Positions 19,771-26,662 of a DNA stretch of 64,000 bases are shown here, piece after piece. Location: contig VAWK01000029.1 of assembly GCA_005885515.1 (NCBI GenBank), positions 13,005 to 77,004 on the forward strand, in the 5' to 3' direction. Position numbers and translations under genes: made by a program. Position 1 is the first letter of the stretch, and every line of letters starts with the position of its first letter. Below the pieces are notes generated by a model, which was not told where the DNA came from, did no database searches, and saw only the letters and a program-made list of their open reading frames with translations. This DNA comes from Actinomycetota bacterium (GTDB lineage Bacteria; Actinomycetota; Thermoleophilia; Solirubrobacterales; Solirubrobacteraceae).

Positions 19771-20928
19771 ATGCCGCCACTGATCACGCGCGAGGAGGCC
19801 CTGCGCCTGGGCCAGCTCGAGGACCGCGCGCAGATCGAAGCCCTGGTCGAGCGCGCCTGGAGCGCGCGCGTGGAGCGCTTCGGCGACTCGACGGACATGT
19901 GCTCGCTGGTCAACGCCAAGTCGGGTGGCTGCGCCGAGGACTGCGGCTTCTGCGCGCAGTCGCGCTTCGCCGACGCCGACACGCCGATGCACGCGATGAT
20001 GGAGCCCGAGCAGGTGCTCGAGCACGCGCGTGCGGCCGAGGCCGCAGGCGCGCACCGCTTCTGCATGGTCACGCAGGGGCAGGGCCTGTCCAAGCGCGAC
20101 TTCGAGAAGTACCTGCAAGGCGTGCGCTTGGTCGCCCAGCACACGAACCTCAAGCGCTGCGCCTCGATCGGGCACATGTCCGTGACGCGCGCGACCGCCC
20201 TGCACGAGGCGGGCATCCAGCGCGTGCACCACAACGTGGAGACCGCCTCCAGCTACCACGACGAGGTCACCACGACGGTCCGCTACGAGGGACGCCTGCG
20301 CACGATCCGGGCGGTGCGCGAGGCCGGCCTGGAGACCTGCGTGGGAGGCATACTCAACCTCGGCGAGACGCGCGAGCAGCGCGTCGAGATGGCGTTCGAG
20401 CTGGCGGCGCTCGACCCCACGAGCGTCCCCATCAACCTTTTGAACCCGCGTCCCGGCACCAAGTTCGGCGACCGGGAGCTGATCGACCCGTGGGAGGCCG
20501 TGAAGTGGATCGCGATCTTCCGCCTGATCCTGCCGGAGGCGCTGTTCCGCCTGTGCGGAGGGCGCGTGGAGAACCTCGGCGAGCTGCAGCCGCTGGCCGT
20601 CAAGGCGGGGCTCAACGGCGTGATGATGGGCAACTTCCTCACCACCCTCGGGGCCGAGCCGGCGGAGGATCGGGCGATGTTCGAGCAGCACGGGCTGAAC
20701 GTCGCGCGCCAGCCCGACAACGCCGCCAACCCGCGGCCGGACAACCGCTCGGGGTGGCTGGCGGGGCAGACGCCGGACCTCGTGCACGAGTTCCTCGGCG
20801 AGCACGATCGCGGCCGTGCATCGGCGGCCAACGCGGGCGATGGCGGCCAGCCCGCGCTGCGGGTGCGCCTGTGGGACCCCTCCACGCAGCTGCGCTACCG
20901 CGCCAAGCGCGCGAGGCAGAGCCGATGA
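19771..20928 (+). CDS. bioB: Biotin synthase
   Basis: A 385-residue radical-SAM enzyme that inserts sulfur into dethiobiotin. The SAM [4Fe-4S] ligands are Cys54, Cys58 and Cys61 in GGCAEDCGFCAQS. Further BioB-specific motifs are YHHNVET-like VHHNVETASSYHDEV, VGGILNLGET, PINLLNPRPGT and a CGGRVENLG variant of the substrate-binding segment. A C-terminal extension after DLVHEFLGEH (roughly 40 residues, basic end) exceeds the usual length. ATG at 19771; the stop overlaps bioF by ATGA, so the two are coupled. First gene of the bioB-bioF-bioD group. Confidence 0.95.
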   Translation: MPPLITREEALRLGQLEDRAQIEALVERAWSARVERFGDSTDMCSLVNAKSGGCAEDCGFCAQSRFADADTPMHAMMEPEQVLEHARAAEAAGAHRFCMVTQGQGLSKRDFEKYLQGVRLVAQHTNLKRCASIGHMSVTRATALHEAGIQRVHHNVETASSYHDEVTTTVRYEGRLRTIRAVREAGLETCVGGILNLGETREQRVEMAFELAALDPTSVPINLLNPRPGTKFGDRELIDPWEAVKWIAIFRLILPEALFRLCGGRVENLGELQPLAVKAGLNGVMMGNFLTTLGAEPAEDRAMFEQHGLNVARQPDNAANPRPDNRSGWLAGQTPDLVHEFLGEHDRGRASAANAGDGGQPALRVRLWDPSTQLRYRAKRARQSR

Positions 20929-22298
20929 GCGATATCGCAGCGCGGCTCGCGGAGCTGGAGCGGCTGGGGCTGAATCGCAGGCTGCGCCTCGTGTCGGGCC
21001 CGCAGGGGCCGACCGTGCTGCTCGACGGCAAGCCGGTGCTGCTGCTGTGCTCGAACAACTACCTCGGCCTGGCGGACCACCCCCGCGTGCGCGAGGCGGC
21101 CGCCGAGGCGGCGATGCGCTGGGGCGCCGGCGCTGGGGCGTCGCGCTTGATCTCCGGCACGATGACCGTCCACCGACGCCTGGAGGAGCGCCTGGCGAGC
21201 TTCGAGCGCAGCCAGGCCTGCCTGCTGTTCGGCGCCGGCTATCTGGCCAACCTGGGCGTGATCAGCGCGCTGGCCGGCCCCGAGGACGCGGTCTTCTCCG
21301 ATGAGCTGAACCACGCTTCGATCGTCGACGGCTGCCGGCTGTCCCGCGCGGAGGTGATCGTCTACCGCCATCTCGACGTGGAACACCTCGAGTGGAGCAT
21401 GCGCCGCGACCGGGCTCGGCGCGACGGGCGAGGCCGCCGGTTGATCGTGACCGATTCGGTGTTTTCGATGGACGGCGACATCGCCCCGCTGGCAGCGATC
21501 GTGGAAATCGCACGCGCCCACGGGGCGCGCGTGGCGGTGGACGAGGCGCACGCCACCGGCACGGTCGGGCCAGGCGGCCGCGGCGCGATCGCCGAGGCGG
21601 GGCTCGAGGGCGAGATCGACGTGACGATCGGGACGCTCGGCAAGGCGCTCGGCTCCTACGGCGCCTACGTCTGCGCCGAGGAGGACATGGTGCGCTACCT
21701 GATCAACGCCGCGCGGCCGCTGATCTTCTCGACCGCGCCCTCGCCGCCCGCGGTCGCCGCGGCCCTGGCCGCGCTGGAGCTGCTGGACGAGCGCCCGCAC
21801 CGCGTGCAGCGCTTGCGCGCCAACGCTCGCGCCCTGCGACGGGCGCTGTCGGCCGAGGGCTTTGCCGTGGCCGACGACGACATGCCGATCGTGCCGCTCG
21901 TGCTTGGCGACGAGCGGGCGGCGATGGAAATGTGCCAGGCCGCCATCGAGGGCGGCGTGTTCGCGCAGGCGATCCGCCCGCCGACGGTCCCGGCGGGGAC
22001 CTCGCGCCTGCGGCTTGCCGCCATGGCCTCCCACACCTCGGCCGACATGGTCAAGGCGGCGAGCGTGCTCGCCGCGGCTGCCCGCGAGCTGGCGCTCGAT
22101 CCCGCTGCCATCGGACCGCCGCCCAGCCGCCTGCCGACCGACCAGCAGACAGCCGCCGATCACGAACGCGAAGAGGCGGCGCTGTACGAGCCGCAAGCGC
22201 TGTCGTCCTCGGTTCCGTTTGACCACGAGCAGGGCACGCCTCCCGAGCACGCCCCGTTTGACCACGAGCGCGACGGCGAGTTCGCCCGCGCGGCGTAG
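20925..22298 (+). CDS. bioF: 8-amino-7-oxononanoate synthase with long C-terminal extension
   Basis: A 457-residue PLP-dependent alpha-oxoamine synthase that condenses pimeloyl-thioester with alanine. Key segments are LLCSNNYLGLADHP, ELNHASIVDG, VAVDEAHATGTVGPGGRG (Asp206) and IGTLGKALGSYG, with the PLP lysine at 240. The catalytic core ends at about residue 395. The last 60 residues are acidic, low-complexity and contain two copies of PFDHE; the coding DNA carries a 16-bp direct repeat at 22215-22230 and 22254-22269. Relatives are usually near 385 residues, so this tail is unusual. ATG overlaps the bioB stop. Confidence 0.93.
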   Translation: MSDIAARLAELERLGLNRRLRLVSGPQGPTVLLDGKPVLLLCSNNYLGLADHPRVREAAAEAAMRWGAGAGASRLISGTMTVHRRLEERLASFERSQACLLFGAGYLANLGVISALAGPEDAVFSDELNHASIVDGCRLSRAEVIVYRHLDVEHLEWSMRRDRARRDGRGRRLIVTDSVFSMDGDIAPLAAIVEIARAHGARVAVDEAHATGTVGPGGRGAIAEAGLEGEIDVTIGTLGKALGSYGAYVCAEEDMVRYLINAARPLIFSTAPSPPAVAAALAALELLDERPHRVQRLRANARALRRALSAEGFAVADDDMPIVPLVLGDERAAMEMCQAAIEGGVFAQAIRPPTVPAGTSRLRLAAMASHTSADMVKAASVLAAAARELALDPAAIGPPPSRLPTDQQTAADHEREEAALYEPQALSSSVPFDHEQGTPPEHAPFDHERDGEFARAA

Positions 22299-22319: not shown

Positions 22320-23024
22320 TTGCGCGGGCTGCTGGTAACCGGCACCGACACCGGCGTCGGCAAGACGGTCGTGAGCGCGGCCCTGCTCGCCGCCATGGCG
22401 GCCGCGGGCGAGCGGGTGCGAGCACACAAGCCGGTCCTGACCGGGCTGGACGACGCGGCGCCTTCCGGCTGGCCCCCCGACCACGAGCTGCTGGCCAGCG
22501 TGACCGGCATGTGCGCGGAGGAGATCGCGCCGCTGCGATACGCGCCCGCGGCCTCGCCACAGCTGGCGGCGGCGCTGTGCGGCGAGCGCATCGACCCCGC
22601 TCACCTGCTGGCGTCGGTGCCGGCGGACCCCGGGCGGACGATCATCGTCGAGGGTGTTGGCGGCCTCCTGACTCCGTTCGCGGACGGCTACGGCGTACGC
22701 GAGCTCGCGGCATCGCTCGGGCTGCCGCTCGTGGTCGCGGCGCGGCCGGGCCTGGGCACGATCAACCACACGCTGCTCACGCTCGAGGCGGCCAAGGCGG
22801 CCGGGCTCCAGGTGCGCGCGGTCGTCCTCACGCCGTGGCCCGAGCGGCCGTCGGCGCTCGAGCTGTCGAACCGCGAAACGATTGCCCGGACGGCAGGGGT
22901 CGCGGTCGCCGAGCTGGCGCGGGTCATGGCTCCGCAGCCGGATGCGCTCGCGCGCGCGGGTGCGCGGCTGCCATGGCGGAAGTGGCTGGCGGCGTCGGCG
23001 CCACCGCAGCCGGCGGCGGCCTAG
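22320..23024 (+). CDS. bioD: Dethiobiotin synthetase
   Basis: A 234-residue ATP-dependent enzyme that closes the ureido ring of dethiobiotin from 7,8-diaminopelargonate and CO2. The P-loop is GTDTGVGKT at residues 8-16. KPVLTG replaces the usual KPVxTG almost exactly, EGVGGLLTPF is the second conserved block, and GLGTINHTLLTLEA is the third. The start appears to be TTG at 22320, since the first strand begins two codons later and no ATG or GTG lies close enough. Located 21 bp after bioF on the same strand; probably one operon. Confidence 0.92.
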   Translation: MRGLLVTGTDTGVGKTVVSAALLAAMAAAGERVRAHKPVLTGLDDAAPSGWPPDHELLASVTGMCAEEIAPLRYAPAASPQLAAALCGERIDPAHLLASVPADPGRTIIVEGVGGLLTPFADGYGVRELAASLGLPLVVAARPGLGTINHTLLTLEAAKAAGLQVRAVVLTPWPERPSALELSNRETIARTAGVAVAELARVMAPQPDALARAGARLPWRKWLAASAPPQPAAA

Positions 23025-23038
23025 CATGCGGTTCTCAG

Positions 23039-24454
23039 ATGGCCCGAGCGCGCAGCCATCCCGCGGCGGACGCCCTCGTCATCTTCGGGATCACAGGCGA
23101 CCTGGCGAAGAAGATGACCTTCTGCGCGCTCTACCGCCTGGAGCGGCGCGGGCTGTTGAGCTGCCCCATCGTGGGCGTGGCGGTGGATGACTGGGGCACC
23201 GAGCGGCTGCGCCAGCACGCGCGCGAATCGATCGAAGCCAGCGGCGAGCCGCTCGACGAGAGCGTGTTTGACCGCCTCGCCGCGCGGATGTCCTACCTCG
23301 GCGGTGACTTCCGGGCGCAGGACACCTATGCGCGCCTCGCCGCCGCGCTGGGCGAGTCCCACGCCACCGTCTTCTACCTGGAGATACCGCCGTCGCTGTT
23401 CGCGACGGTCGTGCAGGGCCTCGCAGGCGCGAAGCTGCTCGGCGAGCGCGCCCGGGTCGTGGTGGAGAAGCCGTTCGGCCACGATGTCTCCTCCGCGCGC
23501 GCGTTGTCCGCTGAACTGCACCGGTTCGTGAAGGAGCCGCAGCTGTATCGGATCGACCACTTCCTCGGCAAGATGGGCCTCGAAGAGATCCTGTACCTGC
23601 GCTTCGCCAACTCGATGCTCGAGCCGGTGTGGAACCGAAACTACCTCGCGTGCGTGCAGATCACGATGGCCGAGAGCTTTGGGGTCGAGGATCGCGGGCA
23701 TTTCTACGACCCGGTCGGCGCCCTGCGCGACGTGGTCGTGAACCATCTCATGCAGCTGCTCGCGGCGGCGGCGATGGAGCCGCCCGCCGGCTCGGACCCG
23801 GAAACGGTGAAGGACGCCAAGTTCGCCGTCTTCCGCGCCACCGCGGACGCGCGTCCGCGACATTACGTGCGCGGGCAGTACGACGGCTATCGCGAGATCG
23901 AGGGAGTCTCGCCGGACTCCGGCACCGAGACCTACGCGGCGTTTCGCCTGGAGATCGACAACTGGCGCTGGGCCGGCGTGCCGGTCTTCATCCGCGCCGG
24001 CAAGTGCCTGGCCGTGACCCAGACCGAGCTGCGACTGCTCTTCAAGCGCCCCCCGCGGCTGGGGTTCCTCAGCGTCGAGCACCGCCGCCCCCAGCCGAGC
24101 CAGATCGTGTTCAAGCTCGACCCGAGCACCGGCATCAGGATCATTCTCGACGCGCTGCGCGCCGACGCGCGGGGGCCGCGGGAGGTCGCGCTGGACGTGG
24201 AGTTCGCTCACGCCGGCGGCGAGGGGCCCGCTCCGTACGAGGTCCTGCTGCACGCCGCGCTGCAGGGCGACAGCAGCCACTTCACGCGCCAGGACAGCGT
24301 CGAGGAGACCTGGCGCATCGTCCAGCCGCTGCTCGACGCGCCCCCGCCGGTAGACCGGTACGCCAAGGGTTCGTGGGGTCCGGCCGCCGGCGATCAGCTT
24401 GTGGCGCGCTTCGGCGGCTGGCACGGTCCCTGGCTGCCCGACGCCGAGCGCTGA
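23039..24454 (+). CDS. zwf: Glucose-6-phosphate dehydrogenase
   Basis: A 471-residue G6PDH, the first enzyme of the oxidative pentose phosphate pathway, producing NADPH. The cofactor motif is GITGDLAKK (residues 17-25). VVVEKPFGHD and the substrate motif RIDHFLGKMGLEEIL follow; the usual RIDHYLGKE carries Phe for Tyr and Met for Glu. Later segments VPVFIRAGKCLA and the C-terminal ADxL-like end are normal. ATG at 23039 is 14 bp after bioD with no clear ribosome site, suggesting coupling to bioD. Its position inside the biotin cluster is probably incidental. Confidence 0.9.
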   Translation: MARARSHPAADALVIFGITGDLAKKMTFCALYRLERRGLLSCPIVGVAVDDWGTERLRQHARESIEASGEPLDESVFDRLAARMSYLGGDFRAQDTYARLAAALGESHATVFYLEIPPSLFATVVQGLAGAKLLGERARVVVEKPFGHDVSSARALSAELHRFVKEPQLYRIDHFLGKMGLEEILYLRFANSMLEPVWNRNYLACVQITMAESFGVEDRGHFYDPVGALRDVVVNHLMQLLAAAAMEPPAGSDPETVKDAKFAVFRATADARPRHYVRGQYDGYREIEGVSPDSGTETYAAFRLEIDNWRWAGVPVFIRAGKCLAVTQTELRLLFKRPPRLGFLSVEHRRPQPSQIVFKLDPSTGIRIILDALRADARGPREVALDVEFAHAGGEGPAPYEVLLHAALQGDSSHFTRQDSVEETWRIVQPLLDAPPPVDRYAKGSWGPAAGDQLVARFGGWHGPWLPDAER

Positions 24455-24512
24455 TCCGCCGCCGCGGCGTGCGCGCGCAGGCGCGCGGCGGCGGCTCTAC
24501 ACTCGCTGCTCG

Positions 24513-25589
24513 ATGGAGGCCGCGCGCGAGGACCAGGTGCCGCTCGAGTCGTTTGCGACAGGCGCGATCGTGCGCCAAGCCGCTCCGCGCCTGCTGCGCG
24601 ACGGCTTCGGTCCGCTGGCGCTGTTCTTCGCCGGCTGGAAGCTGATCGGCCTGGCCTCCGGCATCGGCATCGCGACGCTGTTCGCCACGGCGGTGTTCGC
24701 GCACGAGCGCCGCCAGGGCAGGCCGGCGATGATCGTTCGCGTGGCACTCGCGTTCGTCGCGATCCGCGCCGGCGTCGGCCTGAGCTCGGGCAGCGCCCGC
24801 GCGTATCTGGCAGCGGAAGTCGTGGTCGACACGCTGATCGGCGCGACCGTGCTGGGACTGCTCGCGCGGGGGCGCCCGCTGGCCGTCGTGTTTGCCCGCG
24901 AGATCTACCCCCTGCCGCCCCAGATGACCGAGTCGGACACGTTCGCGCGTGCGATGAGCACGATCACCGCGGTGTGGGGGGCCTACTTCCTGGCGAGGGC
25001 GCTCGTGCGCCTGGCCGCGCTGCTCACGCTCACGACCGATCGCTACGTGCTCGTCGCCGCGCTCAGCGATGCGCCCTTCCTGATCGCGATCCTCGCGTGG
25101 TCGGTGCACCACACCGCGGGCGCGTTCCGCAACAGCGGCGAGCGCCGAAGCCGTGCCGGTCCGCCCGTCGTCAGGAACCTGACCCGGCTCGCGCGGCGTC
25201 GACGACGGCCGCGGCGACGCTGGCGAGCTCCTCCTCCGCGATCACGTACGGCGGCATCGTGTACACCAGGTCGCGAAACGGGCGCAACCACACGCCGCGT
25301 CGCACCGCCGCCTCGGTGGCGGCGCCGACGTCGACGTCGCGCTGTAGCTGAACGACGCCGATCGCGCCGAGCACGCGGACATCCTTCACAAGCGCGAGCT
25401 CGCGGGCCGGCTCCAGACCCGCGCGCAGCCCCGCTTCGATCGCTCCCACCCGCTCGCGCCAGGCTTCCCCGCCCGGGCCCCGCGAACTGCCTGGCACGCC
25501 CGCGTCGAGCCCGGGCTGCCGGCCTTCGCGCCCGTCGAGCAGATCGAGCGAGGCGAGCGCCACGGCGCAGGCGAGCGGGTTCGCCATGA
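24513..25589 (+). CDS. VC0807-like multi-pass membrane protein with an anomalous 3' extension
   Basis: The first about 215 residues form a plausible membrane protein with five or six hydrophobic spans (for example 38-60, 74-90, 100-118, 150-172, 183-200) and a conserved-looking PLPPQM loop. This resembles the VC0807/septation-A-like family of unknown function. The ATG at 24513 follows a GC-rich spacer. The frame then stays open to 25589, adding an arginine/proline-rich tail that is antisense to bioA for 419 bp. A shift of one base near 25150 would instead end it at a TGA near 25180. The natural protein probably ends near 25150-25180. Confidence 0.55.
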
Positions 25590-26469
25590 ACGTCGGCCCG
25601 TGCATCAGCCCCTCGGATACCGCGCGCGTGCAGAGCGTGGCGGCGAGCGTCAGGTAGCCGCCCGTGAGGGCCTTGCCCACGCACATCACGTCGGGTCCGA
25701 TCGCGGCGTGTTCGCTGGCGAACAGCGCGCCCGTGCGGCCGAAGCCGGTGGCGATCTCATCGAGCACGAGCAGCAAGCCGTGCTCGTCGCACAGGTCGCG
25801 CAGCAGCGACAGGCAGGCCGGCGAATGGAAGCGCATGCCGCCGGCGCCCTGCACGACCGGCTCGAGAATGATGCCCGCCAGCTGCTCGCGGTGGCGCTCC
25901 ACCAGCTCGCCGACATGCGCCGCCCAGCCTTCGTCCAGCCCCGCATCGAAGCCGTCGGGCGGGCGCGCGGCGAACACGTGCTGGGCGAGCACGCCGGCGA
26001 ACGCGCTGTGCATGCCCGCGACCGGGTCGCACACGGCCATCGCGCCGAATGTGTCACCGTGGTAGCCGCCGCGCACGGTCAGCAGCCGCGTGCGAGCCGG
26101 ACGCCCGCATGCGCGCTGGAACTGCAAGCACAGCTTGGCGAAGAAGACCGCCCCGAGCGCGCCCGGCGCGATCGCTATTTTACGCTCGGCCAGCCGCACC
26201 GCCGGCTCGTGCGTGAGCCCGCCGAACATCACGTGGGCCATCCGCTCGAGCTGCTCGCGCGCGGCCCGGTCAAGCGCCGGATGCCGGTAGCCATGGATGG
26301 CGCACCACCAAGACGCCATACCGTCGATCAGCCGATCGCCGCTGGCCAGCTCCAGGCGCACCCCCTCCGCCGCCACGACCGGCAGCGGCTGACGCGGGCA
26401 GGGCAGCGCGCCGTAGGGATGCCAGATGTGCTCGCGGTCAAACGCGAGCAGTGCCTCCCAGCCGCTCAG
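25171..26469 (-). CDS. bioA: Adenosylmethionine-8-amino-7-oxononanoate aminotransferase, lacking a PLP-binding segment and canonical start
   Basis: Clear BioA homologue: [63 protein letters not shown], the PLP lysine in CVGKALTGG and [12 protein letters not shown]. Two faults are visible. Between residues 111 and 112 (26137/26136) the sequence passes straight from AVFFA to KLCLQF, omitting about 11 residues that in E. coli include the DSGSVAVE phosphate-binding motif. No ATG, GTG or TTG lies in frame between the rubredoxin stop and the homologous start; CTG at 26469, 10 nt after GAGGAG, is the best candidate. It may be inactive or carry sequence errors. Confidence 0.8.
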
Positions 26470-26476
26470 GCTCGGT

Positions 26477-26662
26477 CTACTCCTCGTATAGCGTGAAGTC
26501 GCGCTTGCGCGCTCCGCAGACAGGGCAGAACCAGGTGTCGGGAATGTCCTCGAAGGCGGTTCCGGGGGGTATGCCGCCGTCTGGATCGCCTTCCTCGGGA
26601 TCGTAGATGAAGCCACAGGATTCGCAGATCCAGCGTTGAAGGGTCCTCGTACTGGTGCTCAT
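26477..26662 (-). CDS. Rubredoxin
   Basis: A 61-residue rubredoxin, a small electron carrier with one iron held by four cysteines. The ligands are Cys13 and Cys16 in [11 protein letters not shown] and Cys46 and Cys49 in [14 protein letters not shown]. The acidic middle ([10 protein letters not shown]) is typical. ATG at 26662. Its last codons contain GAGGAG, which can serve as ribosome site for the downstream bioA. Rubredoxins often serve alkane hydroxylases or oxygen-stress enzymes, but no partner is adjacent here. Divergent from the Nudix gene across only 36 bp. Confidence 0.93.

What the first reader, a model, noticed from the sequence alone, without database searches (positions are those of the whole stretch)
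25171..26469. bioA lacks the PLP-phosphate-binding segment and a canonical start codon
Seen directly: between AVFFA and KLCLQF (junction at 26137/26136) about 11 residues expected from E. coli BioA, including the DSGSVAVE motif that holds the PLP phosphate, are absent, in frame. No ATG/GTG/TTG is in frame between the rubredoxin stop and the first homologous residues; the best start is CTG at 26469 after GAGGAG. All other conserved BioA blocks, including the PLP lysine, are intact. Either the gene is newly inactivated (with bioB, bioF and bioD still intact nearby), or a different enzyme makes 7,8-diaminopelargonate, or the assembly has lost 33 bp.
Basis: partly seen in the sequence, partly recalled or inferred. 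Interest (0 to 1): 0.65.

Follow-up and report, generated by a model that had tools for sequence, protein, structure and literature searches.

The report
Biotin gene missing cofactor-binding segment
In this draft actinobacterial genome the only gene for one step of vitamin B7 (biotin) synthesis has lost, in frame, the 11 amino acids that grip its cofactor, which most likely disables the enzyme (or the assembly has lost 33 bases); its odd CTG start codon is normal for the genus.

Summary
bioA (25171-26469, minus strand) lacks 33 bp in frame at 26137/26136. This removes DSGSVxVEVAI (E. coli D110-M120, with the phosphate-binding G112-S113). Of 130 homologous loci compared, 129 have DSGS; only this one lacks it. 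Across 18 window genes compared with congeners, bioA alone carries private indels of 4 or more residues, and it carries three.

The missing ATG/GTG/TTG is not decay. CTG occupies the same position, just after the rubredoxin stop, in 11 of 21 genus members; several have no other start.

The genome has one bioA, no BioY and no evident replacement aminotransferase, but it has BirA and an AccC homolog. Substitution patterns show no clear long-term relaxation. AlphaFold loses confidence around the active site (mean pLDDT 77.9 versus 86.1 for an intact congener).

Most likely this is a recent loss-of-function allele of an ordinary BioA (about 0.55). A 33-bp assembly loss (about 0.28) cannot be excluded without reads. 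A working enzyme without the phosphate loop is unlikely (about 0.12). Interest is low to modest.

The parts
25171..26469 (-). bioA frame, 432 aa, single copy in the genome, CTG start
   Evidence: (TIGR00508 463 bits, cut-off 405, split in two stretches)
26136..26137 (-). junction of the 33-bp in-frame deletion (DSGSVxVEVAI; E. coli D110-M120, includes phosphate-binding G112-S113)
25611..25612 (-). site of the private 8-residue deletion (AVSE^GLMHGPTF) in a loop of variable length (placement depends on alignment)
25474..25533 (-). approximate place of the private 17-residue insertion after LLDG, in a loop whose length also varies in L064 and L069
26467..26469 (-). CTG start codon, 7 nt after the rubredoxin TAG; GAGGAG inside the rubredoxin 3' end can serve as ribosome-binding site
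26477..26662 (-). rubredoxin gene immediately upstream of bioA, order conserved in the genus
19771..20928 (+). bioB, intact
20931..22298 (+). bioF, intact
22320..23024 (+). bioD, intact

Best explanation
The locus is an ordinary BioA (SAM:8-amino-7-oxononanoate aminotransferase) ortholog that recently lost 33 bp in frame. The loss takes out the loop and first helix turns that hold the PLP phosphate. The protein can still be translated, from the CTG start usual in the genus and coupled to rubredoxin, but should bind PLP poorly or not at all. The KAPA-to-DAPA step is then blocked or crippled, making this lineage a likely biotin or DAPA scavenger while bioB, bioF and bioD have not yet decayed. 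Shown: the deletion, its uniqueness, the single copy, the intact neighbours, and the shared CTG position. Inferred: loss of activity, auxotrophy and recency.
For: The deleted D, S, G, S, V, E, V, A are invariant in the 38 intact homologs of alignment A2, and DSGS is present in 129 of 130 loci. The lost segment is E. coli D110-M120. bioA is the only one of 18 window genes with private indels of 4 residues or more, and it has three. It has 5 private substitutions at invariant columns, level with the most divergent congener and more than the window's 0-2 in bioB, bioF, bioD, nudix and GH15 (the MBL gene also has 5). AlphaFold: helix 111-128 of the intact congener shrinks to 114-120, mean pLDDT falls from 86.1 to 77.9 and pTM from 0.88 to 0.80, with drops near the active site; TM to solved BioA falls from about 0.92 to 0.82. 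No second BioA and no specific replacement. Biotin still seems to be used: a biotin ligase and an AccC homolog are present.
Against: The shift in amino-acid versus synonymous changes on the window branch is weak: bioA 18/58 versus 7/41 for the sister, and bioB shows the same pattern (14/42 versus 6/42), so long-term relaxation is not shown. All three indels keep frame and no stop is present. No BioY was found in any of 24 genus genomes, so an obvious uptake route for an auxotroph is missing. Without reads the deletion could be an assembly error.
Confidence: 0.55

Rival explanations
1. Assembly or consensus artefact: the organism has an intact bioA and the draft genome lost 33 bp here.
For: The genome is a 79-contig draft, 92% complete, probably a MAG. 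All congeners are intact. Two adjacent codons that are CTG CTG in the sister read AAA ATA about 39 bp upstream of the junction, an odd cluster. The deletion ends share only about 1 nt in the sister sequence, so no obvious slippage mechanism.
Against: Seventeen other genes of the same window show no private indel of 4 or more residues. An in-frame result is a 1 in 3 chance, and the two other private indels in the gene are also in frame. The flanking coding sequence is clean.
Confidence: 0.28
2. A functional, shortened BioA that holds PLP without the GS phosphate loop, perhaps compensated by the shortened loop before MHGPTF, which carries the threonine that contacts the phosphate across the dimer (structural knowledge recalled, not tested).
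For: The frame is kept through three indels, substitution ratios are near normal, bioB, bioF and bioD are intact, and no alternative enzyme or BioY was found.
Against: No other homolog among 130 lacks the loop. The predicted model loses confidence in the active site. The 8-residue and 17-residue changes fall in loops that vary in length in intact relatives, so they need no compensatory reading.
Confidence: 0.12
3. Another enzyme (BioK- or BioU-like) makes 7,8-diaminopelargonate in this species, freeing bioA to decay.
For: bioB, bioF and bioD are retained.
Against: The genome's only other matches to the bioA model are a PRK06541-type aminotransferase, ArgD, a PigE-like protein and HemL; congeners with intact BioA show a comparable set. 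BioU was not searched for directly, and about 8% of the genome is missing.
Confidence: 0.05

Closest known systems
BioA of Mycobacterium tuberculosis (PDB 3tft, 4cxq) and E. coli (1dty, 6ed7)
   Same: Same fold and sequence family; K266 (E. coli K274) and the [20 protein letters not shown] and MHGPTF blocks are present.
   Different: Lacks D110-M120 (E. coli numbering) with the GS phosphate loop; has an 8-residue shorter loop before MHGPTF and a 17-residue insertion.
BioA of same-genus genomes (closest L115 = G095, 81% identical outside gaps)
   Same: Same neighbourhood (rubredoxin, nudix, bioBFD) and, in about half of the genus, the same CTG start position.
   Different: All have the DSGSVxVEVAI segment.

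Membership tests
BioA (TIGR00508) | score above the curated equivalog cut-off | tested here: met
   463 bits versus 405, as two stretches
BioA (TIGR00508) | catalytic lysine and substrate/PLP blocks (HPY, SWW, GYHGD, DEIATG, GKALTGG, HGPTF) | tested here: met
   invariant columns of alignment A1
BioA (TIGR00508) | DSGS-x-x-x-E phosphate-binding loop and helix start | tested here: not met
   absent here, present in 129 of 130 loci
BioA (TIGR00508) | SAM-dependent conversion of KAPA to DAPA | not testable with these tools
   needs enzyme assay or complementation
pseudogene / inactive allele | loss of residues invariant in the family and essential for cofactor binding | tested here: met
   invariant phosphate loop missing; that it is essential here is inferred
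pseudogene / inactive allele | frameshift, stop, or relaxed substitution pattern | tested here: inconclusive
   no stop or frameshift; substitution excess small and matched by bioB
assembly artefact | absence of the deletion in reads | not testable with these tools
   no reads held; one genome per species

The most novel reading that the evidence does not exclude
The short protein is an active BioA that holds PLP without the canonical phosphate-binding loop, the three in-frame indels being a coordinated remodelling of the phosphate pocket at the dimer interface.
Probability: 0.08. Interest if true: 0.7.

Novelty: new member of a known kind. Interest (0 to 1): 0.24.

Why it matters
If the deletion is real, this is a clear early step in loss of vitamin prototrophy: one pathway gene crippled while its partners are intact, and a read check would confirm it. 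If the protein is active, the usual PLP phosphate loop would be dispensable in a class III aminotransferase. The CTG start position shared within the genus is a separate, modest, testable point about start-codon annotation in these actinobacteria.

Tried and rejected
A second or replacement BioA in the genome: none specific. BioY uptake: none in the genus. Start-codon loss as a sign of decay: rejected, since CTG is shared in the genus. Relaxed selection from substitution counts: inconclusive. Rfam hits near the bio genes: none. Paper searches for BioA PLP-contact residues returned nothing; two searches on CTG/CUG starts listed no paper on conserved CTG starts in such bacteria by title, and none was opened. 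The organism name was not obtained directly: the genome-contig scan leaves out the own record, and its nearest hits are Solirubrobacterales/Solirubrobacteraceae MAGs.

Full report
What is there. The minus-strand frame 25171-26469 encodes a 432-residue BioA homolog that passes the TIGR00508 cut-off (463 versus 405 bits) but as two separate stretches. Against a solved M. tuberculosis BioA the DSGSVSVEVA segment is missing between AVFFA and KLCLQF. By the alignment of the sister protein L115 to E. coli BioA (chain 6ed7) the loss is E. coli D110-M120, with G112-S113. That G112-S113 bind the PLP phosphate is established knowledge of the E. coli enzyme, recalled and not tested here.

Is it unusual? 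Among 130 BioA loci fetched, 129 read DSGS at this place and only the window does not. The motif is present in all 20 same-genus loci. In a 38-sequence alignment of intact homologs D, S, G, S, V, E, V and A of the motif are invariant. The DNA alignment with four congeners shows a clean 33-bp gap with about 1 nt of shared sequence at the ends.

The same gene has two more private in-frame changes: minus 8 residues just before MHGPTF and plus 17 residues after LLDG. Both places vary in length in intact relatives (L021, L074, L105; L064, L069), so each may be harmless alone. Of 18 window genes that could be aligned with 3 to 13 congeners, bioA is the only one with private indels of 4 or more residues, and all three are there. 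One congener, G090, shows a gap that is an N-run in its contig.

The start codon. The lack of ATG/GTG/TTG is not part of the lesion. At the homologous position, directly after the rubredoxin stop, CTG stands in the window and ten congeners (L116-L121, L123, L127, L128, L132), and GTG stands there in L126. In L116, L117, L118, L121 and L127 the frame is open for only 17-19 codons before WHPY and holds no ATG, GTG or TTG at all. In L120 the sequence CTGA overlaps the rubredoxin stop. The column is CTG in every Leu-bearing sequence, while CTG is only 51% of Leu codons in these genes; one other of 48 Leu columns is also all CTG, so this statistic alone is modest. CTG initiation coupled to rubredoxin translation is the simplest reading; it is inferred, not shown.

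Genome context. The genome is 2.69 Mb in 79 contigs, 92% complete. It has one BioA. Its other matches to the bioA model are a PRK06541-type aminotransferase, ArgD, a PigE-like protein and HemL, and congeners with intact BioA show a comparable set of matches. No BioY is found in 24 genus genomes, with the control search ringing in 9 reference genomes. A biotin ligase is present, and an AccC homolog at 573 bits (below the 626-bit equivalog cut-off), so biotin is probably still used. bioB, bioF and bioD are intact by alignment.

Tests for decay. In bioA the window has 5 private substitutions at columns invariant in 20 congeners (I15, S43, K97, S285, L360), level with the most divergent congener. 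Its counts in bioB, bioF, bioD, nudix and GH15 are 0-2, but the MBL gene also has 5. On the branch to the sister G095, bioA has 18 private amino-acid and 58 synonymous changes versus 7 and 41 in the sister; bioB shows 14/42 versus 6/42. Long relaxation is therefore not shown. If the gene is dead, it died recently relative to the split from its sister.

Structure. AlphaFold2 models built from matched alignments give mean pLDDT 77.9 and pTM 0.80 for the window protein, and 86.1 and 0.88 for the intact sister. The 18-residue helix that starts at the phosphate loop is reduced to 7 residues, and confidence falls near the active site (window block 241-250: 56; control blocks 241-260: 92). Both still match solved BioA best, at TM about 0.82 versus 0.92. 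The models are single chains without cofactor, so they illustrate the lesion but do not test activity; part of the difference also comes from the 17-residue insertion.

Verdict. Observation confirmed. The best reading is a recent loss-of-function allele of an ordinary BioA (0.55), with an assembly loss (0.28), a functional short variant (0.12) and a replacement enzyme (0.05) as rivals. The reads decide the first question and complementation the second.

Noticed in passing
window 26467-26477; L116-L121, L123, L126-L128, L130, L132: bioA appears to start with CTG (GTG in L126) at one shared place just after or overlapping the rubredoxin stop in about half of the genus; several species have no ATG/GTG/TTG alternative.
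   Followed up: yes
window 23045-25100: A zwf gene (TIGR00871) and a VC0807-like gene lie between bioD and bioA here; none of the 20 congener bioA regions has zwf there. Twelve congeners have a close zwf (65-76% identical) elsewhere, while the sister G095 shows only a distant one.
   Followed up: partly
window 22100-22298: bioF has a C-terminal tail of about 65 residues beyond the family profile, with a repeated PFDHE motif (VPFDHEQGTPPEHAPFDHERDGEFARAA); full-length tblastn matches suggest that congeners carry a tail too.
   Followed up: no
window 26176-26181: Codons AAA ATA (K97 I98) stand where the sister has CTG CTG, about 39 bp upstream of the deletion; AAAATA occurs once in the 64-kb window.
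   Followed up: partly
G112 contigs C243 and C162: One congener genome (63% complete) holds two full BioA genes (72% and 56% identical to the window protein), possibly contamination.
   Followed up: no
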